Below are positions 2,246-30,593 of a stretch of 33,470 nucleotides of DNA, one piece after another. The notes under the pieces are model-generated. The model was not told where the DNA came from and made no database searches. It saw nothing but the letters and a program-made list of their open reading frames with translations. Numbering within the stretch: position 1 is the first letter of the stretch; every line of letters begins with the position of its first letter. The translations under genes and the position numbers were made by a program. The stretch lies in NCBI GenBank assembly GCA_902785355.1, contig CACZYF010000029.1, forward strand, positions 1-33,470, in the 5' to 3' direction. Origin of the DNA: an uncultured Ruminococcus sp. Its GTDB lineage: Bacteria; Bacillota; Clostridia; Oscillospirales; Acutalibacteraceae.

Positions 2246-3397
2246 ATGGCAAAGCGCAGACCGAGCGGAGACGGTACCGTCCGCAAGCGCGTCGACGGAC
2301 GCTGGGAAGGGCGCATCATCATCGGACAGATCCTGACCGCCAAAACGCAGAAGGAGCTCGTCGACCGAATTCACCGCGCACAGGATGAGTACGACGGCGT
2401 CGATCTCAGCGAGAAGAGCGACATGACCCTCGAGGAATGGTGCGAGCGCTGGCTGAACGATTACGCAAAGCCCAATCTGAGACCGGGGACGGTAAGCGCA
2501 TACAGCGGTGTCGTCTACCGCCATATTATCCCGAACCTCGGCACGAAGGTGATCCGCTTCATCAAGAGCTCAGACATACGCCGATTTTATGCGAACGAGA
2601 AGGCAAACGGCAGACAAAGGTGCCGTCACACTAAAGGCAAAGGCTTGTCCGATACATCGGTACGCAAGATACACATGCTTCTGCATGAGATCCTCGAATC
2701 AGCCGTCAGAGCGCACCTGATCCCGTCCAATCCCTGCGACGGCGTGGCGATTCCGAAGACCGGCTACGCGCCGAAGAAGATCCTCACCGAAGCGGAGCTT
2801 GACCGCTTCATGAAAGCAATCGCGGAAGAACCGCTCTGGTATGACTTCTTCTATACCGAAGCGACAACAGGACTGCGCAGGGGAGAGATCTGCGGTCTGA
2901 AATGGGAGGACATCGACTTTGATTCAGGCAGGCTGAGCGTTCGCAGAAACGTCACCAAGCGCACCTCAAAAGTTATGCTCGTCGGTGAGACAAAAACGAA
3001 CACAGGCAAGCGCACTATCCTGCTTCCGCCCGGCACGCTCCACCTGCTGAAAAGGCGCCGTGAGAAGATCGCCTCCGAATGGGTGTTCCCCGACTTCTTT
3101 GACAACGCCGTGCCTGTCGCGCCGTACAGCGCTTATCATAAACTCAAGACGATCCTGAAAAAGGCTGACCTGCCCGACATCCGCTTCCACGATCTCAGAC
3201 ACACCTTCGCTACCCACGCGCTGGCAAGCGGAGTGGACGCGAAAACGCTGTCGGGCATCCTCGGACACACCGATCCGAGCTTCACGCTCGATACCTATAC
3301 CCATGTCACCAGCGATATGCACCAGAGAGCGAAGGACATCGTCGGGAGCTTTCTCGATGACTTAACGGGAGGAGAAGAAGATGGCGAAGAAACGTAA
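2246..3397 (+). CDS. Tyrosine recombinase/integrase (first of an overlapping pair)
   Basis: This 383-residue phage-type integrase catalyses site-specific strand exchange through a covalent 3'-phosphotyrosine. It has an N-terminal AP2-like arm-binding domain (residues 5-50, with DGRWEGRIIIG), a SAM-like core-binding domain (about 60-165), and a C-terminal catalytic domain. The catalytic set is complete: R211 (TTGLRRGE), a lysine near 250 (ETKTNTGKR), H315 and R318 (HDLRHTFATHA), H341 (LGHTDPS) and the nucleophile Y351 (LDTYTH). The ATG at 2246 follows AAGGGGG. The last 17 bp overlap the second integrase gene, so the two are probably translated together. The N termini of the two proteins are closely alike (GRWEGRIIIG in both), suggesting an old tandem duplication that then diverged. 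Confidence 0.95.
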   Translation: MAKRRPSGDGTVRKRVDGRWEGRIIIGQILTAKTQKELVDRIHRAQDEYDGVDLSEKSDMTLEEWCERWLNDYAKPNLRPGTVSAYSGVVYRHIIPNLGTKVIRFIKSSDIRRFYANEKANGRQRCRHTKGKGLSDTSVRKIHMLLHEILESAVRAHLIPSNPCDGVAIPKTGYAPKKILTEAELDRFMKAIAEEPLWYDFFYTEATTGLRRGEICGLKWEDIDFDSGRLSVRRNVTKRTSKVMLVGETKTNTGKRTILLPPGTLHLLKRRREKIASEWVFPDFFDNAVPVAPYSAYHKLKTILKKADLPDIRFHDLRHTFATHALASGVDAKTLSGILGHTDPSFTLDTYTHVTSDMHQRAKDIVGSFLDDLTGGEEDGEET

Positions 3398-4829
3398 GGA
3401 CGGCGAAGGAACCCTCCGGCTGAGAAAAGACGGCAGATGGGAAGGGCGTATCATCATCGGCTACGATGAAAAGGATAAGGCAATCACCAAGACCGTAACG
3501 GCACGCTCCAAGCGCGCGTGTGAGACGAAGCTCAAGGAATTAAGGACGAAACACGCTCCCGCGATCGGCGTCTCCAGACGGCAGGCAAAACCCGATATGA
3601 AGCTCGCCGACTGGCTCGATATGTGGTACAAGCTGTATGTCAAGCCAAAGTCAAAGCCGGGCACACACGCGCAGTATGAGACCTTCATCTATCAGCACAT
3701 CAATCCGCAGATAGGGGAGATCCCGCTCTCAAAGCTCACCCAGGAGGATATCCAGACCTTCCTCAGCAACGAGAAGAAAAACGGCAGGCTCACCCTGCGC
3801 GATGTATTCGGCGCGGGAATGTCTGATGCCTCTGTCCGCAAGATGGGGATCATCATCAGCTCCGCCCTGAGGAAAGCGACAGAGCAGAAGCTCCTGCGTT
3901 CCAATCCCGCGAAAGGTACCAAGCTCCCGCCGAAGAAACAGGCAGAGATACACATCCTCACACATGAGCAGTTCAGAAATCTGCTGTTACAGGCAAAGGA
4001 AGACGGCGCGTATGAGATCGTCCTGCTCGAGCTGAGCACAGGCGTCAGGCGCGGAGAGCTCTGCGGTCTGAAATGGGACGACCTCAATTTCTCCACGGGT
4101 GCGCTCCGCATCAGCCGACAGATCATCCGTACCGAAAATGGGCTTGAGGAATCCTCGCTCAAGACGAAGGAGAGCAAGCGGACGGTTTACCTGCCCGATA
4201 CTGTTCTGCAGGTCATGCGGGAGCTGAAAGAAAAGACCGACTCGCCGTGGATCTTCCCCTCGCCGAGGAACGGCGCGAAACCGCGCGATCCGAAATCGCT
4301 TCGCAAAAAGGTCATCAACGTGATGGAACACGCAGGTATCACAGGCGTGCGCTTCCATGATCTCAGACACACCTTCGCTACCTACGCCCTCGAGTACGGC
4401 ATGGACGTCAAAACGGTGTCGATGATTATCGGCCATTCCTCTGTCGCGACCACGCTCAACACCTACAGCCACATCACGAGCGAGATGGAGAAGAAAGCAG
4501 CCGAGAAGATCGAGGGCGGTATCGGTACGAGCGACGCGTTCGAAGAGCATGAAGCAAAGCTCCCCGAGCCCGAAAAGCGGGAAAGGCTAAAGCCGTTCAA
4601 GCCCTATAAAAGAAAATACCGCCGATCGGGAACCGGCGGTATCTACAAGCTGAACGATCACCTCTACGAGGGACGCTATACGCCCACCAACGCGCAAGGC
4701 GAGCGCGAACCCCACAACGTCTACGCCCAAACCTACGAGGAGTGTGAGCAAAAGCTCAACGCCATGATCGAAGAGGTAAAAGCGAGGATCAAGGCGGAAA
4801 AGGAGCAACAGAATTCATCGAAACAATAA
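3381..4829 (+). CDS. Tyrosine recombinase/integrase with a second, C-terminal AP2-like domain
   Basis: This 482-residue integrase overlaps the preceding one by 17 bp and is preceded by GGGAGGAG. Its order is AP2-like arm-binding domain (about 7-52), core-binding domain, then catalytic domain with intact STGVRRGELCGL, HDLRHTFATYAL, GHSSVATTLNTYSH and the nucleophilic tyrosine in the last motif. About 100 residues continue beyond the tyrosine. From residue 417, GTGGIYKLNDHLYEGRY...YEECEQKLNAM repeats the pattern of the N-terminal domain (GTLRLRKDGRWEGR...RACETKLKEL). It therefore seems to carry a DNA-binding domain at each end. Paired recombinases may share one reaction or control its direction; which applies here cannot be told from sequence. 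Confidence 0.93.
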   Translation: MAKKRKDGEGTLRLRKDGRWEGRIIIGYDEKDKAITKTVTARSKRACETKLKELRTKHAPAIGVSRRQAKPDMKLADWLDMWYKLYVKPKSKPGTHAQYETFIYQHINPQIGEIPLSKLTQEDIQTFLSNEKKNGRLTLRDVFGAGMSDASVRKMGIIISSALRKATEQKLLRSNPAKGTKLPPKKQAEIHILTHEQFRNLLLQAKEDGAYEIVLLELSTGVRRGELCGLKWDDLNFSTGALRISRQIIRTENGLEESSLKTKESKRTVYLPDTVLQVMRELKEKTDSPWIFPSPRNGAKPRDPKSLRKKVINVMEHAGITGVRFHDLRHTFATYALEYGMDVKTVSMIIGHSSVATTLNTYSHITSEMEKKAAEKIEGGIGTSDAFEEHEAKLPEPEKRERLKPFKPYKRKYRRSGTGGIYKLNDHLYEGRYTPTNAQGEREPHNVYAQTYEECEQKLNAMIEEVKARIKAEKEQQNSSKQ

Positions 4830-4929: not shown

Positions 4930-5017
4930 ATAATTGAACATATTAGTTGAAAAACAATGAATAAACCCTTGTATAGCAGATTAACAATCAGTATGGTTTG
5001 TTCCTGAGGTGGGGCAC

Positions 5018-7123
5018 ATGAAAAAGCATGATTTAAACGCTGTATTAAAAGAGTGTAAAAAAAGCGCTTCTGCCGGATATAGAATCGCAACGAAACAGCA
5101 TAGGGAATTAAAGAATACCTTAGCTGAAGCGAAGGAAGAGATTAAGAATACACTGATAGAGTTTCAGACTTCTCAGTGTTATTTTTCGGGTGCAACAGAA
5201 ATGCTCTCCGACCAATTAACAGAAATAAGCAACTCCTTCGATACAGTTTCTTTTGCCTTTACTGAAGATTTACAAAACCTTCATGAAAAACTATCCAAGT
5301 TCTCCATAACATTATTTGGAAGAACAATGGCAGGGAAGTCAACTCTGATGGAGATCCTTACACACGGAGACGGTGCATCGATCGGAAAAGGGGCTCAAAG
5401 AACAACTCGTGATATCAGAACTTACATCTGGAAAGATCTGGAGATAACAGACGTTCCCGGGGTAGGTGCTTTTGGTGGCGAAGATGACGAGAACGTTGCG
5501 TACGAAGCAGCAAAAAGATCTGATCTAATTCTTTTCCTGATAACGGATGATGCACCTCAGGCTGTAGAAGCGGAATGTTTCGGAAGACTCGTTGATCTCG
5601 GAAAACCAATGATATGTTTGATGAATGTCAAAGTTGCAATGCCCGAAGGAAAGAATCAGAAACTCATCATCAGGGACATCAATAAGCGTTTTGACACCGA
5701 ACGTCTTGACGTGATACGCCGCCAGTTTTTACAGTATGGTCAGCAACTCGGTCAGGATTGGGATTCTGTACCGTTTGTATATGTTCATTTGAAAGCGGCT
5801 TATTTGGCACAGCAAACAAAAGATCGTGATCTGGCAGATGGCTTGAATACCGTCAGTCGGATCGACGACCTGAAAAATATGATAATTGAACAGGTCAGAG
5901 AAAAAGGAGCTTTTTACAGAGAAAAGACTTTCCTTGATTCTATCTCTGTTCCGATCCTTAGATCCATGGAAAGCCTTCTTGATCAGAGCTTGCTGAATAG
6001 TCAACAGGGCCGCATTATCCTTTCAAAAAAAAGACAGCTGAATCAATGGAAAAAAGACTTTCATCGTGACGGAAAAAAGCGCATCGAATCATTGCTGATT
6101 AACATTCGAAGTCAGTTGAATTCCGAGATAGCTGCATTTGCGGAGGAGCATTATGATGATTCTAAGGCGGATAAAGCATGGAATCGTGTCATAAGACAGC
6201 ACGATGTCAGCGGACAATGTCAGGATCTGTTATTTGAGCTTGAAGAGAGATGCAACAGCAAGATCATGGAGGTATCCAGAGAAATAACGAGCGAATTGAA
6301 TTATATCTCCGCTGTCAGTGCGGACAAGACGCTTCGTATGAATCATATTATTGATGAAAAGAAGATATGGAATTGGGCGGCAGTTTTAATAGGAGGAGGA
6401 TTATCCATAGCAGCCGCTATAGCAGGGCTGTTTGGAGCAACTGCGGCAGTGGCACCTCTCGGCGTTGCTGCGGGTTTGGTTGCAGGCGTTGCAGTTGTAG
6501 GAGATATCTTTTTCTCTAAGCGTTCCAAAAAAGAACATGAGGCAAGAAAACGGCTTGAAAGGAAATTGCAGGAAAATGTAAATAAGGTATGTGATAAGAT
6601 CAACAAGGACAGCAATGATTATCTGGATGCTCTGATTACAAAGAGGATGGATGCTCTTATCATGGAAATGAGCAGAATTGATTCAGTCGTATTTCGTTTG
6701 GCGGATACTCAAAGAGAACTTGCGTGGAAACTGAATGATCATTTGTTGGATCTGAATTACAAAACAGCATCGGAAGCGATGAGGTTTATCGGTGTTGAGG
6801 ATTCGGAATACAGTATAATGAGCGTTGCACGTATTCCCGGAACCGAAAATATCTTATGCTTAGATAACGATAGAACATTTTCTGAAGACCTAACGAAACA
6901 GATGGCAGAGTTGATGTCAGAGAGAATCAGCACAATAGATCGTGCCGATAAAAAAGAGATAATGATTTCAAGAGTGATAGGGAATGAAGCAGACATAAGA
7001 TCTGTTTCTATCGAGGAAAAGATCGGAGTTGCTCATATAAAAACAGAGAACGGATCTCCTTATCTGAAGAACAAAATCAGAATGGCACAGCAATTAACTC
7101 AGATAGCGATAACCGATGAATGA
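5018..7123 (+). CDS. Dynamin-like large GTPase (first of a pair)
   Basis: This 701-residue protein has a G domain after an N-terminal helical part: G1 is GRTMAGKST (residues 101-109), G2 lies around QRTTRDI, G3 is DVPG (145-148) and a G4-like LMNVK follows. A long helical, coiled-coil-rich middle leads to a glycine/alanine-rich hydrophobic hairpin near residues 450-500 (WAAVLIGGGLSIAAAIAGLF and onward), the membrane-inserting paddle position of bacterial dynamins. Dynamin-like proteins hydrolyse GTP to remodel or tether membranes, and paired bacterial ones can form mixed complexes. ATG 5018 was chosen because GAGGTG precedes it by 6 bases; a GTG at 5009 is inside that site. It lies 9 bp from the second GTPase gene, so the two form an operon behind the integrases. 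Base use is more AT-rich than in the chromosomal core. Confidence 0.85.
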   Translation: MKKHDLNAVLKECKKSASAGYRIATKQHRELKNTLAEAKEEIKNTLIEFQTSQCYFSGATEMLSDQLTEISNSFDTVSFAFTEDLQNLHEKLSKFSITLFGRTMAGKSTLMEILTHGDGASIGKGAQRTTRDIRTYIWKDLEITDVPGVGAFGGEDDENVAYEAAKRSDLILFLITDDAPQAVEAECFGRLVDLGKPMICLMNVKVAMPEGKNQKLIIRDINKRFDTERLDVIRRQFLQYGQQLGQDWDSVPFVYVHLKAAYLAQQTKDRDLADGLNTVSRIDDLKNMIIEQVREKGAFYREKTFLDSISVPILRSMESLLDQSLLNSQQGRIILSKKRQLNQWKKDFHRDGKKRIESLLINIRSQLNSEIAAFAEEHYDDSKADKAWNRVIRQHDVSGQCQDLLFELEERCNSKIMEVSREITSELNYISAVSADKTLRMNHIIDEKKIWNWAAVLIGGGLSIAAAIAGLFGATAAVAPLGVAAGLVAGVAVVGDIFFSKRSKKEHEARKRLERKLQENVNKVCDKINKDSNDYLDALITKRMDALIMEMSRIDSVVFRLADTQRELAWKLNDHLLDLNYKTASEAMRFIGVEDSEYSIMSVARIPGTENILCLDNDRTFSEDLTKQMAELMSERISTIDRADKKEIMISRVIGNEADIRSVSIEEKIGVAHIKTENGSPYLKNKIRMAQQLTQIAITDE

Positions 7124-7132
7124 GGTGACATT

Positions 7133-8812
7133 ATGTTTATCATTGCAGAGTATTCAAAAAAAGGCGAAGAATTAAAGGAGCGGACAAAACAGCTTTTTGA
7201 AGAGGCGAATATGGATTTTACGGAATCTGATGAAGACACAGATATCATCAGACTGGCTTTTGCAGGACAGTACAGCGCCGGTAAGTCGTCTATCATTAAG
7301 ATGTTGACGGGACGTTCGGATATTTCCGTCGGTGCCGGTATTACAACACAGGATGTCCACACCTATGAATGGAGCGGGATGGAAGTAATCGACACCCCCG
7401 GTATCGGAACAGGAATCCGCTATGATCATGACGAAATATCCTACAGAGCTTTTGCCGGTGCGGATATGATCGTATATGTTGTTACCAATGAGCTGTTCGA
7501 TTCTTTTTTGGCAGAACATTTCAGAAATCTCGCTATTGAAAAAGACAAGGCGGGAGAAATGATACTGGTAGTCAACAAAATGGAGAGAACCTCAGAAGGA
7601 AATACGAAAGAACAGCAGGATATTATTCGTGAAGATCTGCGAGATGTTCTTGCTCCTTATTCTCCCGAACAATTGAATCTATGCTTTCTTGATGCGGAAT
7701 CCTATCTCGAAACGGACGATGAAGATGACCCTGAAATAGTGAATGAACTGGTGGAAAGAAGCGGATTCTCTCACTTTATTGAGATATTAAATCACTTTGT
7801 TTCTGAAAAAAGTCTTTCCGCTAAACTGACGACCGGACTTTACATTCTTGATAAAAAGTTAGAGAAGGCGATTGAAGAGCTGAGACCGAAGTCATCTGAT
7901 GCGGATATAGATGCACTGGAGGAGAACTATTTACAGCAACGTCATGTTTTTGTAGATGCACGCGTAAGGATAGAGCAGGAAGTGAAAGATATCTTTTCTA
8001 ATGCTGCGTCCGAAGTTCGTAATCTAGGGCTTGAATCCGCTAATCTCATATATGAGGGGTGTAAAAAAGAAGAAGTTGAGTTTGAACTTGAAAATAATGT
8101 GCGTCAATCAAATGAGATAATAGAAAAGTGTCAGCAGGATGCCGCGTTATTGATTGAAACGAGATTGACTGCAATGGGTCAGGAAATTGAAGAAATGGAA
8201 AACTCAGTTTTTTCAAGAGAATTGAAAATGCGTTTGAGCGGCAAATTTGACGGTCTTCCTGAAAATGTCAAAAAAATGTTTGGTGCAGCCGTACCCGAAA
8301 TACAGAAGGCAGGACAAGCTCTGGTGAATAACGCGTATAAGGCCGGAGCTGAAGGAGGTTTGAAACTTGCGAATTTCGCAGGTGGAAATGTTCATGATAT
8401 TGTTTTGAAAGCAGGAAAGATGATCGGCTATAAGTTCAAACCTTGGCAGGCCGTAAAAATTGCAAAAGGGGTTGCAGTAGGAGGACATATTCTTGGCATC
8501 GTCGGTGTAGGTTTAAATGTTTTTATGCAGATAAAAGAAGATGTTGACACCGATCGGATCCGTATAGATATGAGAAACAACCGCCAAAATATCAGAAGCC
8601 AATTTAACTCGGCAGCAAATGAACTGGAAGATTTCGGCCGCGGTTTTGTTCAGAATTCAATTGAGAAATCTCTGGCAGAGCCTATTTCGGATTTGGATAA
8701 TAAGATTCGAGATATTCGCGAGTCTCGTTCAAATCGAAGTGCTGTATGTAATAAAATGGAATTACTTCAAAGGGAATGTCAAACCCTTATACACGATATT
8801 CATAATATGTAA
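7133..8812 (+). CDS. Dynamin-like GTPase (second of a pair)
   Basis: This 559-residue protein has its G domain near the N terminus: G1 GQYSAGKSS (45-53), a threonine-rich G2 (GAGITTQDV), G3 DTPG (87-90) and G4 VVNKME. A long helical region follows. A glycine-rich hydrophobic stretch near 435-460 (GVAVGGHILGIVGVGLNVFM) could be its membrane-contact segment. It starts 9 bp after its partner, behind GAGGTG. The partners share the fold but little plain sequence, which fits a heteromeric pair such as those described in Campylobacter and in the Leo proteins of E. coli. The adjacent integrases make a mobile, possibly anti-phage, cargo role likely, but that is inference. A bidirectional terminator follows directly. 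Confidence 0.85.
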   Translation: MFIIAEYSKKGEELKERTKQLFEEANMDFTESDEDTDIIRLAFAGQYSAGKSSIIKMLTGRSDISVGAGITTQDVHTYEWSGMEVIDTPGIGTGIRYDHDEISYRAFAGADMIVYVVTNELFDSFLAEHFRNLAIEKDKAGEMILVVNKMERTSEGNTKEQQDIIREDLRDVLAPYSPEQLNLCFLDAESYLETDDEDDPEIVNELVERSGFSHFIEILNHFVSEKSLSAKLTTGLYILDKKLEKAIEELRPKSSDADIDALEENYLQQRHVFVDARVRIEQEVKDIFSNAASEVRNLGLESANLIYEGCKKEEVEFELENNVRQSNEIIEKCQQDAALLIETRLTAMGQEIEEMENSVFSRELKMRLSGKFDGLPENVKKMFGAAVPEIQKAGQALVNNAYKAGAEGGLKLANFAGGNVHDIVLKAGKMIGYKFKPWQAVKIAKGVAVGGHILGIVGVGLNVFMQIKEDVDTDRIRIDMRNNRQNIRSQFNSAANELEDFGRGFVQNSIEKSLAEPISDLDNKIRDIRESRSNRSAVCNKMELLQRECQTLIHDIHNM

Positions 8813-8838
8813 AATTTACCTTGCCTTAACAATGAAAA
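8811..8838. repeat. Right copy of the 28 bp imperfect direct repeat
   Basis: This is the partner of 2159-2186 (25 of 28 bases identical, same orientation). It overlaps the TAA stop of the second dynamin-like gene and runs into the left arm of the terminator hairpin. Confidence 0.55.
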
Positions 8839-8871
8839 CAGCCGTCAAGCACCAAACTTGACGGCTGTTTT
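8835..8871. terminator. Bidirectional terminator between convergent genes
   Basis: AAAACAGCCGTCAAG pairs with CTTGACGGCTGTTTT across a 7-base loop. A runs on one side and T runs on the other let it stop both the dynamin operon (plus) and the RloC-like gene (minus). Confidence 0.9.
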
Positions 8872-8895
8872 GGTCGAAATACAGAGTACGATATT

Positions 8896-10098
8896 TTATT
8901 CATCTATTGAAGGCATAACGTCGATTACCTCACCAAATAAATGATATTCATCATAATCTATAATTTCTATATTGGGGTACTTTTGATTGGTGGAAACAAG
9001 TAACACTCCGTTTTTGGTCTGTACGACTTTTTTGCAGTAACATACACCTTTATACCAAGCTATTCCCTTATGGGCGTTTGGAATCTCCTCACATTCTTTC
9101 ACTAATGCGATTGAACCATCACAAATATCTGGTTCCATACTATCTCCGGATATTTTTACTGCGAAAGAACAGTTTGGGTTATTAACCTCAAATTCATCTG
9201 AAATGAGATTGTTATCCAGATAGTCACCGTATCCTGCAGAAGCCGCCATTTTGTATAAAGAAACTTTAAAAGTCTTAGGACGTATTATTTCTACAGCTTT
9301 TCCCTCTTCTTGGTAAAGTGGATCACATAGAGCGGCCAAAGTATTATAGTGCGTTTCATCATGAAGTTTTATAAATTCGAGTAGATTTAGCAGAATATCA
9401 GGAAGTGCTACTATTGTATCAATATCATCCGAATTATCGTTGTCTGTAATAATTCTCAGATGAGAACGGTTATTCAGTAATCTTAATACCGCCCTACCTG
9501 CTGCAGTATTATTATCTTTTTCTATCTCGAGAACTTTATCAATCATAGTGCGGTTACCGCTGGGATATGGAAGTTTAAAAGTTAAAAATGCTTCTAATAA
9601 TCGACGAGCCATATTTGGGTATTGTAAATAGTCAGTCGTGTTTTTGGGCGGATCTTTTACGAAATCGTATATTTTTTTAAATAAATAAGCATATTCATCG
9701 TGAAATTGGTTGATGAGGCTGTCCTCGTTAACGAGCTGGGGAGCATTTTGAACACGTTTAATTGTATAGCGATTCGTATTATCTTTAAACATTAATGAAT
9801 AGTCTTTATAAAGAGAAAACTTGTGTGTGAAAACAAAGGTTTGACCTGCTAGGTCGGATTTCTCTTTTATATAACTGATTGCATTGTAATAGAAATTGGA
9901 ATCAAAACTTGAAATCGGATCATCTAAAACAATTATTGTATTATTAATGTCTGAATCTACGTCTAACAGAGAGTTAAAGAAGTATATTAGAGCGATGGCA
10001 TTTTCTTCTCCGGTGCTGAGGTTAGTAGCTCTTTTTCCGTTTCTGGTAATCTTGTATCCTAAATCTGTGTTCTCGAATACCAACTCTGATCGTCCCAT
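8896..10098 (-). CDS. RloC-like ATPase/nuclease, C-terminal part fused to an S24 peptidase domain
   Basis: This is the second half of a gene split by a -1 frame change. The frame is open back to 10242, and the ATG at 10098 lies inside conserved sequence without a ribosome site. Counting from that ATG: ABC signature NLSTGEENA (26-34), Walker B IIVLDDPISSFD (55-66), then a putative anticodon-nuclease triad R165-x3-E169 and H213, spaced much as in PrrC/RloC proteins. From about 275 to 400 it reads like the S24 half of a Firmicutes XRE/S24 repressor: possible Ala-Gly cleavage bond in ASAGYGDYLD (A288-G289), SGDSMEP with Ser320, and a lysine at 356 or 357 (CYCKKVV). S24 domains cleave themselves on RecA filaments or bind as dimers. 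Fusing one to an RloC-like protein could tie the nuclease to DNA damage or phage signals; that is my inference. Confidence 0.75.
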   Translation of the reverse strand: MGRSELVFENTDLGYKITRNGKRATNLSTGEENAIALIYFFNSLLDVDSDINNTIIVLDDPISSFDSNFYYNAISYIKEKSDLAGQTFVFTHKFSLYKDYSLMFKDNTNRYTIKRVQNAPQLVNEDSLINQFHDEYAYLFKKIYDFVKDPPKNTTDYLQYPNMARRLLEAFLTFKLPYPSGNRTMIDKVLEIEKDNNTAAGRAVLRLLNNRSHLRIITDNDNSDDIDTIVALPDILLNLLEFIKLHDETHYNTLAALCDPLYQEEGKAVEIIRPKTFKVSLYKMAASAGYGDYLDNNLISDEFEVNNPNCSFAVKISGDSMEPDICDGSIALVKECEEIPNAHKGIAWYKGVCYCKKVVQTKNGVLLVSTNQKYPNIEIIDYDEYHLFGEVIDVMPSIDE

Positions 10099-10211
10099 TA
10101 TGAACGCAATATCTTTGTTTATCTCATCAGCAGAAATTTGAGAATTTTTGATTTCTTGCTCCAGTTTTATGATACCTTGTGTCGAAGAAATGATACTATT
10201 ATTCAGTACGT

Positions 10212-10243
10212 CTATTTCTTTTCCCTTTTTTCTATTTCTTCTT
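10212..10243 (-). other. Frameshift site joining the two halves of the RloC-like gene
   Basis: The upstream frame stops at TAG 10214-10212; the downstream frame is closed by TGA at 10245-10243. The two frames overlap only here. The overlap holds a run of six A then three G (minus strand, 10231-10223) and shorter A runs. A -1 slip or a one-base loss in the run joins both frames into about 880 residues. Confidence 0.7.
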
Positions 10244-11546
10244 CAAATGTAATTATGCTGTCCGAAAAGTTGGAAAGGTAATGAATTTCAATTTTATGCT
10301 GAGCTTCACGGATGCTTTCTTGGAATCTTTCTGTTATTTCATTATGCTTTTTAATGATATCATTTATTTTATTGAAAACGGAATAGTCAAATGATAATTC
10401 ATTAACGCACATTGCAAATACGTTTAAATATGAAAGGTTTATTATATCACTTTTTTTGTTTTTTAGTATTTCAATAATCTGTAGTATTGCATTAATGTAT
10501 TTGTCACAAATCTCAATAGCGTTGGATTGAAGCAAAATGTACTCACCTTTCAGTTCAGGATAGAATAATGCACTATCAGGTAAGCTGGTTTTTGAAATTT
10601 CAAACTCGTTAATCTTATTATTCAGTAGATTGATAGTATTATCTATTCTGTCACAAAGGTCTTTGTAAGATTTATTAAAGTGTGCGCGTAATTGATCAAA
10701 TCGCTGATTAGATATCTGATTACCGCAAAATAGACAAATATTTGATTGGCGTTGTGCGTGGAGAGATAACCCCTGTTCAAGCCATTTGCTTTGTTCATAG
10801 TCATTTTTTAAAGAATCGATTGTTTTGTTGGTGGGAGTTTCGGATAGAATATCACTAACATACCCTTCAACAGTGGATTGAATGAAATCAGCACGAATAG
10901 TATTAATAGGTTCACGTTTTTCGGCATGTACAGAGGAGAGAACTCTTTTATATTCTTCTTCAGTTAAAGTTTGTTTATCTTTCAGCTTTTTAAATGAATC
11001 ATAGAACTTGTTTTTGTTATAGGAACTATTATAGCTTACAGTATCTTTGATAAGTTTTGCTTTTTCGGCTTTAAATTTTTCAAATTCACCCTTTTTGGCA
11101 GATAAATCGTTCTGTAAACTCTTTAACCGAGAACTTTGTTTTCTAACTTCTTCCTTTAGTTCTTTAACCTCAATTATTCTATCAGTTTGCTCTTTGCCTA
11201 CGGAAAAAATATGCTTTACATGATCAACTGCTGAAATATTATCTCGTATATAATTATGGTGAAAAACGCAAATTCTATAAGGAATGGTTTCTAACTGATT
11301 CTTATTGATTGGTTTGAATTCATGACTATCAGTGTCTTCAAATAATAACGAAAAACGAATCTCGTCACTTAATGCTGTTTGGTCCACAAGTGCTTTGAGA
11401 AAATCACATAGAGTAGTTTTTCCGCTTCCGTTCCATCCATAGATAATGTTGTTCTCCGCAAAAAGCTTGCAATTGCTCTCATCCCATTTAAATCTCTGAA
11501 AAAAACGGTATCCATTTAACTCCTTTATTTTGCGTAGTTGATACAT
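10212..11546 (-). CDS. RloC/PrrC-like ABC ATPase, N-terminal part with zinc hook
   Basis: This 444-residue half starts at an ATG behind TAGGAGGATAATA. It has an ABC-type P-loop GWNGSGKTT (37-45), then long charged helices typical of coiled coils. A zinc-hook-like CLFCGN (C271, C274) sits between the two coiled-coil arms. The returning arm runs to the TAG at 10212. This is the AAA_13/RloC arrangement, in which an SMC-like ATPase controls an anticodon nuclease that shuts down translation during phage attack. The signature and Walker B needed for ATPase function are in the shifted frame, so this half alone should not work. The gene starts about 20 bp behind the terminator-like hairpin of tRNA-Pro and has no clear promoter of its own. 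Whether the shift is real, programmed or a sequencing error is open. Confidence 0.8.
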   Translation of the reverse strand: MYQLRKIKELNGYRFFQRFKWDESNCKLFAENNIIYGWNGSGKTTLCDFLKALVDQTALSDEIRFSLLFEDTDSHEFKPINKNQLETIPYRICVFHHNYIRDNISAVDHVKHIFSVGKEQTDRIIEVKELKEEVRKQSSRLKSLQNDLSAKKGEFEKFKAEKAKLIKDTVSYNSSYNKNKFYDSFKKLKDKQTLTEEEYKRVLSSVHAEKREPINTIRADFIQSTVEGYVSDILSETPTNKTIDSLKNDYEQSKWLEQGLSLHAQRQSNICLFCGNQISNQRFDQLRAHFNKSYKDLCDRIDNTINLLNNKINEFEISKTSLPDSALFYPELKGEYILLQSNAIEICDKYINAILQIIEILKNKKSDIINLSYLNVFAMCVNELSFDYSVFNKINDIIKKHNEITERFQESIREAQHKIEIHYLSNFSDSIITFEEEIEKREKK

Positions 11547-11570
11547 TATTATCCTCCTATAAGCTTAAAA

Positions 11571-11600
11571 ACAGCCGCAGGAAATAAACCCTGCGGCTGT
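11571..11600 (-). terminator. Terminator-like hairpin behind tRNA-Pro
   Basis: An 11 bp stem (ACAGCCGCAGG with CCTGCGGCTGT) is followed on the minus strand by TTTTAAG. It lies 24 bp after the tRNA 3' end and about 14 bp before the ribosome site of the RloC-like gene, so it separates tRNA transcription from that gene. Confidence 0.75.
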
Positions 11601-11623
11601 TTGTGTGCGGTCATAGCCGCATT

Positions 11624-11699
11624 TGGTCGGAGTGAAGGGATTTGAACCCCCGACATCCTGCTCCCAAAGCAGGCGCGCTACCAACTGCGCTACACCCCG
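11624..11699 (-). tRNA. tRNA-Pro (anticodon UGG)
   Basis: This is a 76-base cloverleaf with encoded CCA. The acceptor stem is CGGGGTG/CACTCCG (one G-T pair), the anticodon arm CCTGCTTTGGGAGCAGG has TGG in the loop, and the T arm contains GTTCAAAT. Its 5' 39 bases are repeated exactly at 11838-11876. It marks the right end of the left accessory region. Confidence 0.95.
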
Positions 11700-11723
11700 A
11701 AATTTTTATGAAACTGTTCTGTT

Positions 11724-11743
11724 TGTGGTCATCGTTGTGGTCA
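11724..11743. repeat. TGTGGTCA direct repeat pair, 12 bp apart, beside tRNA-Pro
   Basis: TGTGGTCA occurs at 11724-11731 and 11736-11743, in the 138 bp between the intact tRNA-Pro and its 5' copy. Closely spaced short repeats beside an attachment site resemble integrase arm-binding sites. The rest of 11700-11837 shows no gene. Confidence 0.4.
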
Positions 11744-11837
11744 AGCGAAGTTTTGCCGAACTTGAACTCTTGAAAGAACCCACTGTTTAAGCGAATATTC
11801 GGAGCCGTTCGGCGGAAAAGTCGGTAAAAGCTCCTTA

Positions 11838-11876
11838 CTCCCAAAGCAGGCGCGCTACCAACTGCGCTACACCCCG
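11838..11876 (-). pseudogene. Truncated tRNA-Pro (5' half only)
   Basis: An exact 39-base copy of tRNA-Pro runs from its first base through the anticodon loop and ends in GGGAG; after that the sequence is unrelated. It cannot fold into a tRNA. It is the first thing transcribed from the tRNA promoter at 11958-11986, which marks it as the original 5' half cut by recombination in the anticodon loop. Confidence 0.85.
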
Positions 11877-11957
11877 GTATTCTGTTTTATATATTTCGGA
11901 CAAACGGCGGCGGTGCGTAATGGCGCACATCGCTGCTCGGACTCGGTGAACATGACT

Positions 11958-11986
11958 ATTATAACCGAAGAAAAAAATATTGTCAA
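11958..11986 (-). promoter_or_regulatory. Consensus sigma-A promoter of tRNA-Pro
   Basis: On the minus strand there is a perfect TTGACA, 17 bp, and a perfect TATAAT. It faces the truncated tRNA, then the intact tRNA-Pro, then the RloC-like gene. Confidence 0.85.
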
Positions 11987-12000
11987 CACGAAAAAACCTA

Positions 12001-12029
12001 TTGTCTTTTGTCAAAAAAAGGGATATAAT
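12001..12029 (+). promoter_or_regulatory. Promoter of the membrane protein at 12150
   Basis: TTGTCT and TATAAT are 17 bp apart, about 120 bp before the start codon. It stands back-to-back with the tRNA-Pro promoter. Confidence 0.6.
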
Positions 12030-12149
12030 ACTTTTTGCAATAAGCTGAGGGGCTTGTTGAAGCGGGCTGCAAGCGGTATCAGAGCCGTTTGGACTGCGTA
12101 GATCGCCGGTAGGAGTATCGGTGGGGATTACATGCAGAGGAGGGTATAT

Positions 12150-13346
12150 ATGCGCGTGCGTTGGCTGAGGCTTGCGGCGATTATTTGTGCTGTCGTCGTA
12201 GCGATCTGCTGTTTTGTGCTGCCTGCGGCGGCGTTGGACGCAACCTATACCTTCAGCGATTTCGGCATGTCGGTCAAGTTCCCGAAGGAGTTCAACGTCA
12301 TTACCCGCGATACCAACCGTACCGATCCTGTTTTTGAGGCGACGGGTCTGGATTATGACCAGACTATGACGGCGTTCCATGCGGCGAGTATTTACCTGCG
12401 TGCTTACGAACCCGAGAATACATACCAGATCAGTCTGACTGTAACGAAGAACGAGAGCAGTGAGGCAGTCAACAACTATGCCGACCTTAACGCGGCGCAG
12501 CGCAAGTCGATCTCCGACGCGCTGGCGGCTGACGAGAGCGTGAGTTCCGCAGTGGAGGTCAAGCATAATAACATCATCTTCATCGATTCGGAGCGTGAGC
12601 TCAAGTCGGGCGACGACAGCGTTTATCTGAACCAGAGCAATACCATCGTCAACGGACTGCAGATCGACCTTGTCCTGCAGAAGGAGAAGGAACCGATCAC
12701 GACGGATGAGGCGAAGGTTCTGGCGGCTGCGGCGAATTCGCTGAGCTTCGACAACATCAAGCGTTCCGAGTCCGGACCTAAGTTCGACTGGTGGCGGCTG
12801 CTGCTGTGGGTAGGGCTTTTGGTCGTGATTTCCGTAGCGGTCTCGATCCTTTACAAGCGCCGCAACGACGCGCAGAAGCGCAAGATGGAGGAGCGCAGGC
12901 GCAGACATGCCGCGTCATCCGGCATGACCTTCGGTAAGATCGACGCGGATGAGAGCGCCGAGCCTGAGGAAGCGTGGCAGATGTCCTTTGAGGAATCGCT
13001 CGGCTATCGTGACGACGAGGAATTTACCTCGCGCGCGGCGGCTGACGAGATGGCGGGCTACGACATCAAGGTGCGCGACCGCGATCCCAACAAGGGCGTG
13101 GCGTTCTTTGAGGACGGAGGCGACGGCATCGACGACGGTTCCGATTACTTCGATACCTACTTCAAGGAGCCTACCGAGGAGCGTACCGCCATGCAGCGCA
13201 TGGCGAGCACGGTGAACGCTTATTCGCAGATCGCCGTGAACCATACCGGCGACTTCTTCAAGAACCTGTTCAAGAAGCTGAAGAAGTGGTTCAAGAAGCT
13301 GTTCGGTAAGATCAGGAAGCTTTTCGGCGGCGGTAAAAAGAAATAA
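12150..13346 (+). CDS. Membrane-anchored protein of unknown function
   Basis: I do not recognise the family. The 398-residue product has a signal peptide (MRVRWLRL, then a hydrophobic core to about PAAALDA). An exported domain of about 190 residues follows (TYTFSDFGMSVKFPKEFNV...), which looks like a soluble beta-rich lipoprotein or PsbP-like fold. One membrane segment lies near 220-238 (LLLWVGLLVVISVAVSILY). The cytoplasmic tail is highly charged, with an acidic stretch and a very lysine-rich end (repeated LFKKLKKWFKKLFGK-like helices). The start at 12150 was chosen for GAGGAGGG just before it; the ATG at 12132 includes that site in its coding sequence. It is a single-gene unit with its own promoter and terminator. 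Confidence 0.75.
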   Translation: MRVRWLRLAAIICAVVVAICCFVLPAAALDATYTFSDFGMSVKFPKEFNVITRDTNRTDPVFEATGLDYDQTMTAFHAASIYLRAYEPENTYQISLTVTKNESSEAVNNYADLNAAQRKSISDALAADESVSSAVEVKHNNIIFIDSERELKSGDDSVYLNQSNTIVNGLQIDLVLQKEKEPITTDEAKVLAAAANSLSFDNIKRSESGPKFDWWRLLLWVGLLVVISVAVSILYKRRNDAQKRKMEERRRRHAASSGMTFGKIDADESAEPEEAWQMSFEESLGYRDDEEFTSRAAADEMAGYDIKVRDRDPNKGVAFFEDGGDGIDDGSDYFDTYFKEPTEERTAMQRMASTVNAYSQIAVNHTGDFFKNLFKKLKKWFKKLFGKIRKLFGGGKKK

Positions 13347-13351
13347 TGACG

Positions 13352-13380
13352 GCGGACGGGTCAGCTCGTCCGCTTTTTTT
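13352..13380 (+). terminator. Rho-independent terminator
   Basis: GCGGACG pairs with CGTCCGC over an 8-base loop and is followed by seven T. It lies 6 bp after the stop of the membrane protein gene. Confidence 0.9.
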
Positions 13381-13392
13381 ATCATAAGAATA

Positions 13393-13421
13393 TTGTTTCG
13401 TTTGAAATACTGTGTTATAAT
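13393..13421 (+). promoter_or_regulatory. Promoter of the methyltransferase/acetyltransferase unit
   Basis: TTGTTT and TATAAT are 17 bp apart, ending about 30 bp before the ATG at 13453. Confidence 0.6.
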
Positions 13422-13452
13422 CAGCGAAAAGTCGAACAGAGGAGGCGACGGA

Positions 13453-14241
13453 ATGAAGATAAACGGCATCGATCGGGAGCGTGATTTCGATTTCGGCAGG
13501 GTTTCCGCCGATTACGCGACGTTTCGCGATATCTACCCGCAGAGCATGTACGATAAGCTCGTCATGCTGGGGATCGGCAGAGAGGGTCAGCAGATCCTCG
13601 ACCTCGGCAGCGGCACGGCTGTTCTGCCCGTCCGCCTCAGCCGCACGGGAGCGATCTTTACCGCGACGGATATCTCCGCCGAACAGGTGAAGGTCGGCGA
13701 ACGGCGGGTAAGGGAGCGGGGGATCGATAACATCCGTTTCAAGGTCTGCGCTGCTGAGGATACGGGTTTTGCCGACAACAGCTTCGACGTCGTGACGGCG
13801 GTGCAGTGCTTTCAGTATTTCGACGCGGAGAAGGCGGCTCGGGAGATCAGGCGTGTGTTAAGACCCGACGGGCACTTCTGCAAGATCTTCATGGACTGGC
13901 TGCCCTATGAGGATGAGGTCATCGCCGAAATGGAGCGGCTCGTCCTGTCGTATAATCCCGCATGGAACGGCGGCGGTTTCAAGACCTACGATTACAGCTA
14001 TCCTGCATGGGCGCAGGGACGCTTCGAGATCGAGACCATCCATTCCTACAACGCGATGCTTGAGTTTACCAAGGAAGGGTGGCTCGGCAGAATCAAAACC
14101 TGCCGCGGCGTCGGCGCAAGCCTTCCCGAGGACAGAATACGGGCGTTCGAGCACGAATACCGCTCGATGCTCGAGAAGTACGGCGAGCCCCTGCGACTGA
14201 AGCACCAAATCCACATCGAGCTCTATCGGGTGCTCAAATAA
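13453..14241 (+). CDS. Class I SAM-dependent methyltransferase
   Basis: This 262-residue soluble enzyme has a Rossmann-type SAM site: motif I ILDLGSGTAVLP near residue 47, acidic TATDIS after strand 2, and FDVVTAVQCFQYF with VLRPDGHF as in the UbiE/Methyltransf_11 group. The substrate cannot be told; a small molecule is usual for this group. The ATG at 13453 follows AGAGGAGG; an upstream in-frame ATG at 13393 lies on the promoter and is not used. The stop is 24 bp before the GNAT-ASCH gene and no terminator lies between, so the two are probably co-transcribed. Confidence 0.85.
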   Translation: MKINGIDRERDFDFGRVSADYATFRDIYPQSMYDKLVMLGIGREGQQILDLGSGTAVLPVRLSRTGAIFTATDISAEQVKVGERRVRERGIDNIRFKVCAAEDTGFADNSFDVVTAVQCFQYFDAEKAAREIRRVLRPDGHFCKIFMDWLPYEDEVIAEMERLVLSYNPAWNGGGFKTYDYSYPAWAQGRFEIETIHSYNAMLEFTKEGWLGRIKTCRGVGASLPEDRIRAFEHEYRSMLEKYGEPLRLKHQIHIELYRVLK

Positions 14242-25536: not shown

Positions 25537-27009
25537 TTATTTTGCAAAAATCACGTCATTATCTATTATTTGTAATGCTTGCTGCTCCATCTTGTATGCC
25601 TCGTATCGCTTCTCGTTGGCTTCAAGAGCAAGGTCATTGATTTGCCGCTGAATGTCCTTGTTTTTCAGAAGTGGGAAAGGAATACTGCTCACATGCGTAT
25701 CGTCGATTTCATCCACAACAGAGCCATAAGTGTAATGCGTAATCAACTTATGCCCATAATCAGATTTAAGAAAGACACTCAAATATCCTGCAATATTCTT
25801 TTCAACAGGAACAATTCGAATTATATGATCCGAGGGAATCCAATGTTCCCAATGTTTAGGAACAAGAACAACTTTTCCTATTGTGCCACTTCTCGTAACC
25901 AGAATAGTATTCTGAGCAACTTCAAGTTTTTTCATCAACTTCTTGTGCTTTGTTCTGGAAAGATACTTTTTCCCCGATGGATCAAGTTCATTGATTTGTT
26001 TACCACCAATCAAAACACTTCCATAACCTTCTTCAACATACACTCTGGCAAATCTCGGAGGTAAAAGCACATCTTTGCTCACGCGACTATCACCGACAGT
26101 CGTAACTTCAGCTGCATATTTCTTCATGTGTTCAACAATCGCATCCACGATAGGAACATGATACGAAGCATCAACACGACCCGCCATCTGACTCAGCTTG
26201 ACGCTGAATGTATCCACGCCTACATTTTTCTTGTAAAGTGCAACATCAAAATCGTGGATGTCTGGCAACTGAAGCTCATTTATCAACAAAGAAGTTGCCT
26301 CATCAATTAAAGCGTTAGATTCATCACGTAACTCGTAAGAACCAACAATCAAATCATTGATACGTTTCTTAATTTCAACAGGCGCATCAGGGATAGGCAC
26401 TGTAGTAAGATGTTCTGGCTCAATGTGTGTAATAACAGCGCCATAACTGTTCGTAAGCAGTATTTTATTTCCTGTTGCGCTCTTCAGATATGCATAGATA
26501 TATCCTGCATCATACGGTACTTTACAATCTATTCTCAGAAGATCATGACTAAAAATCCGATTGTCTAATGTCTTTGAAACAAAAGAAACCTTACCAATAG
26601 TCCCCGAACAAGTCATAAGAACCTGTCCAGCATGAACACGCAAAGCATCAATATCCGTCTGTGTTTTATGAGATAAATACCCATCAGGAGTAGGATATAT
26701 ATCTGTAATTGAAGACGGCTGATAAATGGGAAGGTCGGACTTTTCAAGCCAAATACGCTTAAATCGCCCGCATACATATGAATCGGCAAAACCATTCTCA
26801 CCGCCGACCATCTTCACAGGATACTTCCCGTGTTCAACAGCAGCACGAGCGTGTTTAGCATCTACGTCAAACACGCTAGCCTCTAAACGCTTACCTCTGG
26901 AAACAACATCCGACAGTGTTACAGTGCAGAATTTTAGCGGTGACTCTGCCACTTCAACTTTTTGCACAACATCCTCTTGTAAGGCATATGCTACATTTCC
27001 GCTTACCAT
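25537..27009 (-). CDS. hsdS: Type I restriction-modification specificity subunit (HsdS)
   Basis: This 490-residue specificity subunit has two target-recognition halves, each ending in the conserved contact loop and helix: VLMTCSGTIGKVSFV with YIYAYLKSATG near the first half's end, and ILVTRSGTIGKVVLVP with YLSVFLKSDYG in the second. A coiled-coil spacer follows each (RINDLIVGSYELRDE; QINDLALEANEKRYE). It chooses the DNA site for the methylase/nuclease subunit. ATG 27009 was picked because AGGAGGG stands right before it and the start overlaps the hsdM stop (ATGGTAA); the ATG at 27033 lies before that site and would put it inside the coding sequence. Sequence of the recognition domains predicts no known target by eye. 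Confidence 0.92.
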   Translation of the reverse strand: MVSGNVAYALQEDVVQKVEVAESPLKFCTVTLSDVVSRGKRLEASVFDVDAKHARAAVEHGKYPVKMVGGENGFADSYVCGRFKRIWLEKSDLPIYQPSSITDIYPTPDGYLSHKTQTDIDALRVHAGQVLMTCSGTIGKVSFVSKTLDNRIFSHDLLRIDCKVPYDAGYIYAYLKSATGNKILLTNSYGAVITHIEPEHLTTVPIPDAPVEIKKRINDLIVGSYELRDESNALIDEATSLLINELQLPDIHDFDVALYKKNVGVDTFSVKLSQMAGRVDASYHVPIVDAIVEHMKKYAAEVTTVGDSRVSKDVLLPPRFARVYVEEGYGSVLIGGKQINELDPSGKKYLSRTKHKKLMKKLEVAQNTILVTRSGTIGKVVLVPKHWEHWIPSDHIIRIVPVEKNIAGYLSVFLKSDYGHKLITHYTYGSVVDEIDDTHVSSIPFPLLKNKDIQRQINDLALEANEKRYEAYKMEQQALQIIDNDVIFAK

Positions 27010-29786: not shown

Positions 29787-30593
29787 TTGACGCTCGATCA
29801 AGTCACCGCTGTTATCTCCGGCAAGCGAGTCCTTGCGCCGCCGAAAGATATCGCAGAGGTGCAGAACGCGTATGAGATCTATGACCGCCTTGATACGCTG
29901 GATCCTTACTCCGTGGACGATCTTTTGCTTGCTCACGAGGTAATGACACGCGGATTGGTCAATGAATCGGGAGAGTTTCGCTCCGGCTCCGTCGGCGTCG
30001 TCGATAACCACGGCAATGTGCTTCATGTCGGTACACTTCCGGCGTATGTCCCCGGGTTAGTCTCGGAGTTGCTTGACTGGGTCAAAAATGATCCGCGCCA
30101 TATCCTGATCAAAAGCTGTGTGTTCCATTATGAATTTGAGCTGATCCATCCCTTTGCGGACGGTAACGGCAGGATCGGCAGACTGTGGCATACGCTCCTG
30201 CTGTCAAAATGGAACCCGATCTTTGCGTGGCTCCCTATCGAGTCGATGATACATGACAGGCAGGAGGAATACTACCGCGCCTTCAATGCCGCGAATGTTG
30301 CCGTAGACTCAACCGTATTCGTCACCTTTATGTTGGAGGCGATCCGTGATACGATGCTCGAAGTGATCGACGGTTCTGTTTCTGTGAAACACAGCAAGTC
30401 GGAGAAAGCGGCTGCTCGGGAAAATACCGTGATGAATTATCTGCACGAGAATGGCGAGATAACTAACAGCGACGTTCGCGAACTTTTGAATGTTTCTGTT
30501 GCGACCGCAAATCGAATCCTCAACACGATGGTAGAAAAGGGATTGATCATCCGCTTCCGCAGTGGCAGGTCATGGGCATACCGTAAACGATAA
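29787..30593 (+). CDS. fic: Fic family protein with C-terminal HTH, N terminus disrupted
   Basis: The core Fic motif is intact: HPFADGNGRIGR, with the partner features NAYEIYDRL, GEFRSGSVGVVD, KSCVFHYEFEL and the C-terminal winged helix (NSDVRELLNVSVATANRILNTM). Fic enzymes usually transfer AMP from ATP to a protein hydroxyl. The frame has no ATG at its front; the only start here is TTG 29787. Upstream of it the same frame reads TIYSSLAIEQNTL, the expected autoinhibitory helix, but no start codon stands before a stop. In another frame ATG 29714 opens MMQKYPFQI, the usual N terminus of this family. So a deletion with a frame change has removed the segment between. The protein may be dead, or may lack its inhibitory helix. 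It converges on the relaxase gene. Confidence 0.8.
   Translation: MTLDQVTAVISGKRVLAPPKDIAEVQNAYEIYDRLDTLDPYSVDDLLLAHEVMTRGLVNESGEFRSGSVGVVDNHGNVLHVGTLPAYVPGLVSELLDWVKNDPRHILIKSCVFHYEFELIHPFADGNGRIGRLWHTLLLSKWNPIFAWLPIESMIHDRQEEYYRAFNAANVAVDSTVFVTFMLEAIRDTMLEVIDGSVSVKHSKSEKAAARENTVMNYLHENGEITNSDVRELLNVSVATANRILNTMVEKGLIIRFRSGRSWAYRKR

What the first reader, a model, noticed from the sequence alone, without database searches (positions are those of the whole stretch)
8896..11546. RloC-like zinc-hook ATPase/anticodon nuclease fused to an S24 self-cleaving domain
P-loop, CxxC zinc hook, ABC signature, Walker B and an RxxxE...H set follow the RloC order. The last 125 residues match the S24 half of XRE/S24 repressors, with the Ser (SGDSMEP), a Lys and a likely Ala-Gly bond. 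A damage-sensing peptidase tail on a translation-stopping nuclease would link its release to RecA or phage signals. I do not know this architecture from described systems.
Basis: partly seen in the sequence, partly recalled or inferred. Interest (0 to 1): 0.82.

Follow-up and report, generated by a model that had tools for sequence, protein, structure and literature searches.

The report
RloC-type defence nuclease with self-cutting tail
A gene, split by a frame break in this genome, encodes a predicted DNA-break-sensing, tRNA-cutting defence enzyme that carries a self-cutting tail normally found on gene repressors; whole versions exist in other gut bacteria, which points to an undescribed damage-controlled switch on a toxic enzyme.

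Summary
10212-11546(-) carries the P-loop and CxxC hook; an overlapping, shifted frame (8896-10242) carries the ABC signature, Walker B, RloC triad and a C-terminal S24 domain. Together they cover AAA_13 almost end to end: a near-complete gene with one frame break (decay or assembly error most likely). The architecture is real: four loci, three from named strains, encode AAA_13 + Peptidase_S24 as one 913-916 aa chain; three of these follow type I hsd genes, the fourth cannot be read upstream. Nine of nine S24-tailed RloC sequences read keep Ser, Lys and the Ala-Gly bond; the tail is under purifying selection in the best-sampled clade. Tailed RloCs fall in two separate RloC clades (one-clade tree rejected), most simply two gains. 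S24 tails were also met on NsnA/PD-T4-2-like, Nhi/AbiO-like and GajB-like proteins. Likely mechanism: a RloC anticodon nuclease whose lifetime or activity is set by RecA-type self-cleavage of the tail; whether cleavage turns it off or on is undecided. Nine searches of an open-access library showed no description. New variant of a known kind.

The parts
8896..11546 (-). RloC-type gene with S24 tail, interrupted by one frame break
10212..11546 (-). first frame, 444 aa: ATPase N half, coil, zinc hook (AAA_13 profile 9-423)
8896..10242 (-). second frame, 448 aa stop to stop: ATPase C half, HEPN nuclease, S24 tail (AAA_13 430-700; Peptidase_S24)
10212..10242 (-). overlap of the two frames, site of the frame break
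11412..11438 (-). Walker A / P-loop GWNGSGKTT
10725..10736 (-). CxxC zinc-hook motif CLFC
10003..10020 (-). ABC signature LSTGEE
9901..9936 (-). Walker B / D-loop IIVLDDPISSFD
9460..9606 (-). anticodon-nuclease triad R213-x3-E217-x43-(S)H261 of the HEPN domain
   Evidence: motif as defined in PMC2610378
8923..9246 (-). Peptidase_S24 domain (residues 333-440 of the second frame)
   Evidence: fold
9232..9237 (-). predicted self-cleavage bond Ala336-Gly337
9139..9141 (-). predicted catalytic Ser368
9031..9033 (-). predicted catalytic Lys404
7133..8812 (+). neighbour: LeoA-like dynamin GTPase
   Evidence: PADLOC LeoA E 1.6e-116
5009..7123 (+). neighbour: LeoBC-like dynamin GTPase
   Evidence: PADLOC LeoBC E 1.4e-96
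2246..4829 (+). two tandem tyrosine integrase genes of the island

Best explanation
The locus is an AT-rich, probably horizontally acquired RloC-type gene: Rad50-like ATPase with zinc hook, then a HEPN anticodon nuclease, then a C-terminal S24 self-cleaving tail. By the established behaviour of RloC, the ATPase would sense DNA ends and switch on tRNA cleavage. The S24 tail adds a second control: on binding RecA-ssDNA filaments (or another inducer) it would cut the chain after Ala336, separating ATPase-nuclease from tail. Shown here: domains, motifs, conservation, two separate placements on the RloC tree, and purifying selection on the tail in one clade. Inferred: nuclease activity, cleavage, and RecA as trigger. 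Direction is undecided. I give 0.40 to cleavage as an off-switch (the trimmed nuclease is disposed of), 0.35 to an on-switch (nuclease released), and 0.25 to a tail whose main job is dimerisation or sensing without cutting. In this genome the gene is broken by a frame shift, so this copy is probably inactive unless the break is a sequence error.
For: AAA_13 in both frames and S24 in the second; RloC triad R-X3-E-X36-52-H with Ser before His (definition); one-frame homologues L088, L090, L091, L093 with AAA_13 and Peptidase_S24; Ser, Lys and Ala-Gly in 9 of 9 S24-tailed RloC rows; S24-tail dN/dS 0.088-0.153 in 10 of 10 pairs among L087 and L090-L093; at least two changes of the tail on the AAA_13 tree, one-clade tree rejected; model of the window's second frame matches LexA and LexA/UmuD/lambda-repressor-RecA complexes (3jsp_A E 3.0e-7, 8trg_I 7.2e-7, 8gmt_A 1.8e-5) and Rad50 (1f2u_B 5.9e-4); RecA and a LexA-sized S24 protein in the same genome; RloC is activated by DNA-break inducers (PMC3874168, passages).
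Against: The window's copy is not one frame; of 5 S24-tailed homologues held from N-terminus to C-terminus, 1 (L089) is split too and 4 are whole, and L086 is only a nuclease-end plus S24 piece. No assay of tRNA cleavage or self-cleavage exists. S24 proteins can cleave without RecA (IrvR, PMC7101444). The selection figures come from one clade of close relatives, not from the window's. In the window model (mean pLDDT 65.0) the ten-residue block with Ser368 scores 76 and the one with the Ala-Gly bond 59; the full-length homologue model is poor (51.7). L090 also matches the PADLOC PrrC profile weakly (E 6.8e-9 against 5.9e-46 for PDC-S06).
Confidence: 0.6

Rival explanations
1. On-switch: the tail holds the HEPN nuclease silent; RecA-triggered cleavage releases it, as UmuD cleavage activates UmuD (recalled).
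For: RloC logic is DNA break -> on (PMC3874168); the tail directly follows the HEPN domain.
Against: RloC already has an ATPase-based on-switch; autocleavage fragments of LexA-like proteins are targeted for proteolysis (PMC7101444).
Confidence: 0.35
2. Off-switch or built-in alleviation: cleavage exposes a C-terminal end of type -SA and the ATPase-nuclease is degraded by housekeeping proteases, limiting self-harm while a break is under repair.
For: Autocleavage exposes degrons in LexA-like proteins (PMC7101444); S24 tails end other restriction/defence-type enzymes; S24-tailed genes lie downstream of type I hsd genes, whose HsdR is known to be removed after DNA damage (recalled, not from a call).
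Against: No degradation data; whether an -SA end is a degron is a guess.
Confidence: 0.4
3. The tail is a decoy or sensor without a cutting role: it resembles phage/element repressors so as to feel phage antirepressors, or it only dimerises the protein.
For: On the S24 tree the tails lie among S24 domains most of which come from repressor-sized proteins.
Against: Ser, Lys and the Ala-Gly bond are kept in 9 of 9 tailed RloC rows.
Confidence: 0.25
4. The window copy is dead: a frame break in an AT-rich acquired gene beside a tRNA, or an error in a draft assembly.
For: Single break with nothing else lost; G+C 30-37% in 500-base windows across 8501-11500 against 46-59% in those of 11501-14000; 15 of 15 non-S24 relatives placed on the tree are single frames, though these were picked among best hits with a frame of 400 aa or more, which favours whole genes.
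Against: All motifs on both sides of the break are kept, as expected for a very recent break or an error rather than old decay.
Confidence: 0.75
5. The break is read by programmed frameshifting, giving full-length and short products.
For: Two distant S24-tailed genes (window, L089) are each split inside an A-rich stretch with overlapping frames.
Against: The breaks lie at different places of the protein (after the second coil; shortly after the zinc hook), RNA downstream of the window's break folds no better than shuffles (z 0.48; 129 of 200 shuffles fold at least as well), and four S24-tailed homologues need none.
Confidence: 0.07

Closest known systems
RloC anticodon nuclease (Geobacillus kaustophilus, Acinetobacter baylyi; PMC2610378, PMC3874168)
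   Same: ABC motifs, CxxC zinc hook in the coil, R-X3-E-X36-52-(S)H nuclease triad in this order
   Different: described RloC ends after the nuclease domain (recalled; 'S24' occurs 0 times in either paper); here an S24 domain follows. No described RloC sequence was held for a direct alignment
PrrC anticodon nuclease
   Same: ABC ATPase plus HEPN triad; S24-tailed homologues L089, L090, L091 and L093 lie directly downstream of hsdR, as PrrC is tied to a type I system
   Different: PrrC lacks the zinc-hook insert (PMC2610378), which is present here; the window gene has no hsd genes next to it
LexA / UmuD / XRE-S24 repressors
   Same: S24 fold, Ser and Lys, Ala-Gly bond
   Different: no HTH and no polymerase role; the partner is an ATPase-nuclease
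PADLOC PDC-S06 (candidate defence family)
   Same: best PADLOC match of both frames (E 3.9e-78 and 1.3e-70) and of the whole homologues L090 and L088
   Different: the PDC-S06 profiles matched (693-862 positions) leave the S24 part unmatched

Membership tests
RloC | ABC-ATPase motifs (Walker A, signature, Walker B) | tested here: met
   (spread over two frames in the window; one frame in L088, L090, L091, L093)
RloC | CxxC zinc hook in the coiled-coil insert | tested here: met
   CLFC at 10725-10736; CPYC in L087-L091 and L093; zinc binding itself not testable here
RloC | R-X3-E-X36-52-H with Ser often before His | tested here: met
   R213-x3-E217-x43-H261, S260
RloC | one open reading frame | tested here: not met
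   window split at 10212-10242; met in L088, L090, L091, L093. The claim is therefore a broken member, or a sequence error
RloC | wobble-nucleotide excision from tRNA, switched on by linear DNA and ATP | not testable with these tools
   needs protein
S24 (LexA-like) peptidase | profile match and fold | tested here: met
S24 (LexA-like) peptidase | Ser, Lys and Ala-Gly in sequence | tested here: met
   9 of 9 tailed RloC rows; Ser to Lys spacing 36, as S224/K260 of IrvR
S24 (LexA-like) peptidase | Ser-Lys pair close together in a structure | not testable with these tools
   the model came without coordinates
S24 (LexA-like) peptidase | RecA-stimulated self-cleavage | not testable with these tools
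   needs protein
PrrC | no zinc-hook insert; embedded in a type I R-M locus | tested here: not met
   hook present; no hsd gene adjacent in the window
XRE/S24 or LexA repressor | N-terminal HTH | tested here: not met
   no HTH match in either frame

The most novel reading that the evidence does not exclude
The S24 tail is a portable self-destruct module that several unrelated defence enzymes (RloC at least twice, NsnA/PD-T4-2-like, Nhi/AbiO-like and GajB-like proteins) have taken up. For RloC it tells a repairable break from a phage-seized cell: bare DNA ends switch the nuclease on, a RecA filament (repair under way) makes the tail cut itself and ends the nuclease, and phages that block end-processing or RecA leave it on.
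Probability: 0.22. Interest if true: 0.85.

Novelty: new variant of a known kind. Interest (0 to 1): 0.62.

Why it matters
LexA-type self-cleavage is known as a switch for repressors and for a polymerase subunit. Finding its catalytic residues kept on a tRNA-cutting defence enzyme, in two separate branches of that enzyme family, and meeting the same kind of tail on other defence-type enzymes, suggests an undescribed way to couple autotoxic defences to the DNA-damage signal. It makes an open question testable: how RloC-type suicide enzymes are kept from killing cells that can still repair their DNA.

Tried and rejected
Tried without result: single-protein scan of viral contigs (7 stretches, 0 relatives); alignment scan of viral contigs (302 stretches, 5 loci, 5 of 5 matching the S24 region only); phages and plasmids with the window's second frame and with the whole homologue L090. 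No phage (0 of 155 matching) or plasmid record (0 of 149 matching) covers 80% of the window frame; for L090, 4 of 174 matching plasmid records cover at least 80% and all 4 matches end at residue 768-779, before the S24 part, and 0 of 235 phage records do. GmrSD_N-S24 (L099) likewise: 0 of 164 plasmid and 0 of 297 phage records cover 80%. Structure of full-length L090: poor, not used. RNA-structure support for recoding: none. The promoter/terminator scan of 11400-11900 found one promoter-like site on the other strand and no terminator by its rules. Rejected: chance match (E-values); fusion as an annotation artefact (whole frames in four loci); tailed RloCs as one clade (AU p 5.3e-53); PrrC membership (zinc hook).

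Rows dropped: L074 did not match my motif pattern in the tree script and L140 did not match it; neither is on the tree. L086 was left out of the AAA_13 tree because it lacks the ATPase part. The S24 tree (81 rows, 125 columns) has few columns and several long rows, among them the window's own; its grouping of tails (14 rows: 9 RloC tails and 5 others, 82/87) is weak and I use it only as a lead. My S24 extraction kept only domains fitting a hand-made pattern.

Full report
What is in the window. On the minus strand, 10212-11546 is a 444-aa frame and 8896-10242 a 448-aa stop-to-stop frame (400 aa from its first ATG); the two overlap by 31 nt and lie in different frames. Pfam gives AAA_13 in both, profile positions 9-423 (E 2.4e-53) and 430-700 of 713 (E 3.4e-55), and Peptidase_S24 at residues 333-440 of the second frame (E 8.8e-18). 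The motifs follow the RloC order: Walker A, CxxC, ABC signature, Walker B, R-x3-E-x43-(S)H, then S24 with Ala336-Gly337, Ser368 and Lys404. The RloC paper defines the triad as R-X3-E-X36-52-H, Ser often before His (PMC2610378, passages read). Against the single-frame relative L136 the two frames match residues 16-440 and 441-745 without a gap: the gene is otherwise complete and has one frame break.

Is the architecture real? A scan of genome contigs (84,980 species genomes) gave 107 pattern matches and 48 confirmed loci; in 8 of the 48 (L086-L093) the match starts at query residue 208 or earlier, that is, reaches from the S24 tail into the AAA_13 part. Reading all 8: four are whole single frames, L088 (Anaerotignum MAG, 916 aa), L090 (Flavonifractor sp. 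An10, 913), L091 (Evtepia gabavorous, 913) and L093 (Ruminococcaceae bacterium Marseille-P2935, 913); L087 and L092 are single frames cut by contig ends; L089 (Butyricicoccus MAG) is split into two frames at another place; L086 has only the nuclease end plus S24 and no ATPase part in the 16.7 kb held. Pfam confirms AAA_13 plus Peptidase_S24 in one chain for L088, L090, L091 and L093, in the cut frames L087 and L092, and in the second frame of L089. hsdM, hsdS and hsdR matches lie upstream in L090, L091 and L093, and hsdR in L089. The S24-tailed gene begins 29-43 nt after the last hsdR codon, stop codon included, in these four. L088 has under 300 nt upstream and L087 and L092 none, so they cannot be judged.

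Is the tail functional? In the alignment of 23 S24-bearing rows, Ser and Lys are invariant, and all 9 RloC tails have the Ala-Gly bond. Among L087 and L090-L093 the tail's dN/dS is 0.088-0.153 in 10 of 10 pairs; of the 11 pairs with L088 or L089, 7 could be computed, near saturation, at 0.119-0.269, and 4 could not. This concerns one clade and says nothing direct about the window. The model of the window's second frame has mean pLDDT 65.0; of the ten blocks from residue 351 on, eight score 86-94, the one with Ser368 76 and the last 73, while the block with the Ala-Gly bond scores 59. Foldseek finds LexA C-terminal domains and LexA-, UmuD- and lambda-repressor-RecA complexes, and Rad50 for the ATPase part. 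By sequence the PDB search finds only UmuD entries for the second frame (4 sequences) and one weak match (E 0.11) for the first. No coordinates were available, so the Ser-Lys distance is untested. The full-length L090 model was poor.

Origin. Supported branches force at least two changes, and the tree holding all tailed rows together is rejected (AU p 5.3e-53). Two gains are the simplest reading; one gain with several losses is not excluded. 15 of 15 non-S24 relatives on the tree are single frames, though my choice of rows favours whole frames. A tree of 81 S24 domains puts the RloC tails near each other and near tails of two GmrSD_N proteins, with weak support.

The tail is not confined to RloC. 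L095 and L099 join GmrSD_N (PADLOC NsnA and PD-T4-2_A) to S24, L079 an SLFN-type helicase (Nhi/AbiO-like), L080 and L081 UvrD helicase plus HSDR_N_2 (GajB-like by PADLOC), L082 a partial UvrD. These were met while reading long S24 frames, not in a census, and such frames look rare: in the list of S24 matches for 148 genomes of the class, which the tool cut, three rows have frames over 400 aa.

Surroundings. The gene is AT-rich (500-base windows of 30-37% G+C across 8501-11500; 46-59% in those of 11501-14000) and starts 77 nt after a tRNA-Pro gene. Between them is a strong hairpin with a T run (z -6.5) and an AGGAGG before the ATG; the pattern scan named no terminator there and found one promoter-like site, on the other strand. 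Beyond the gene lie LeoA/LeoBC-like dynamins and two tandem integrases. I read this as a defence island by a tRNA. RecA and a LexA-sized S24 protein are elsewhere in the genome.

Mechanism. RloC's nuclease is switched on by DNA-break inducers and by linear DNA with ATP (PMC3874168, passages). Its nuclease domain is a HEPN domain (PMC3710099, passages). LexA-like proteins cut themselves at Ala-Gly and the fragments are targeted for proteolysis; one, IrvR, cuts itself without RecA (PMC7101444, passages). Putting these together, the tail should make the nuclease's activity or lifetime depend on self-cleavage, most likely RecA-stimulated. Nothing here fixes the direction; I lean slightly to off (0.40) over on (0.35). 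AbpAB is a defence system triggered by DNA damage but, by its authors' tests, not through RecA or LexA (PMC10732053, passages), so damage-sensing defences need not use RecA.

The break. Decay or an assembly error explains it best. Programmed frameshifting is unlikely: L089's break is elsewhere in the protein, the RNA downstream of the window's break folds no better than shuffles, and four homologues do without.

Literature. Words searched inside papers: 'S24' 0 times in PMC2610378 and PMC3874168, where 'LexA' and 'SOS' occur only in reference lists; 'S24' and 'LexA' 0 times in PMC3710099, PMC12839542 and PMC10853773. Subscription papers and preprint servers are largely not covered, so this is not proof of novelty.

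Verdict. A real, conserved domain fusion in two branches of the RloC family, found here in a broken copy. It is a new variant of a known kind; the mechanism is plausible and untested.

Noticed in passing
L095 6873-8375, L099 6897-8363, L079 3762-6194, L080 3953-6418, L081 3257-4981, L082 3819-5318: S24 tails on other defence-type proteins: GmrSD_N (NsnA/PD-T4-2_A-like), SLFN-type helicase (Nhi/AbiO-like), UvrD+HSDR_N_2 (GajB-like), partial UvrD.
   Followed up: partly
   Followed up: no
L089 6607-9362: A second S24-tailed RloC gene, downstream of hsdR, also split into two overlapping frames, shortly after the zinc hook.
   Followed up: partly
L086 7938-8690: Orphan piece: HEPN end of RloC plus S24, 41% identical to the window over residues 208-440 and with no ATPase part in the 16.7 kb held; a remnant or a stand-alone nuclease-S24 gene.
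   Followed up: partly
window 11624-11699 and 11838-11876: tRNA-Pro (TGG) just upstream of the gene; a 39-nt copy of its 5' half lies 138 nt further on, like a scar of integration or duplication.
   Followed up: partly
window 11556-11615 (-): Very stable hairpin with T run between the tRNA and the gene's AGGAGG/ATG (z -6.5); expression may depend on read-through.
   Followed up: partly
window 25537-29024 (-), 29787-30593 (+), 30607-31836 (-): Second probable island next to two tRNA-Ser genes: Methylase_S gene, N6_Mtase fused to HSDR_N_2, Fic/DOC protein and Mob_Pre relaxase.
   Followed up: no
window 5009-8812 (+): Adjacent pair of LeoBC/LeoA-like dynamin GTPases, convergent with the RloC-S24 gene.
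   Followed up: no
L083 3581-4993 (-): XRE/S24 protein with about 300 residues without a Pfam match between HTH and S24.
   Followed up: no
L110/L020, contig end (Candidatus Heritagella intestinalis): S24 tail cut by the contig end, closely grouped with the RloC tails of L087 and L090-L093; likely another tailed RloC.
   Followed up: no
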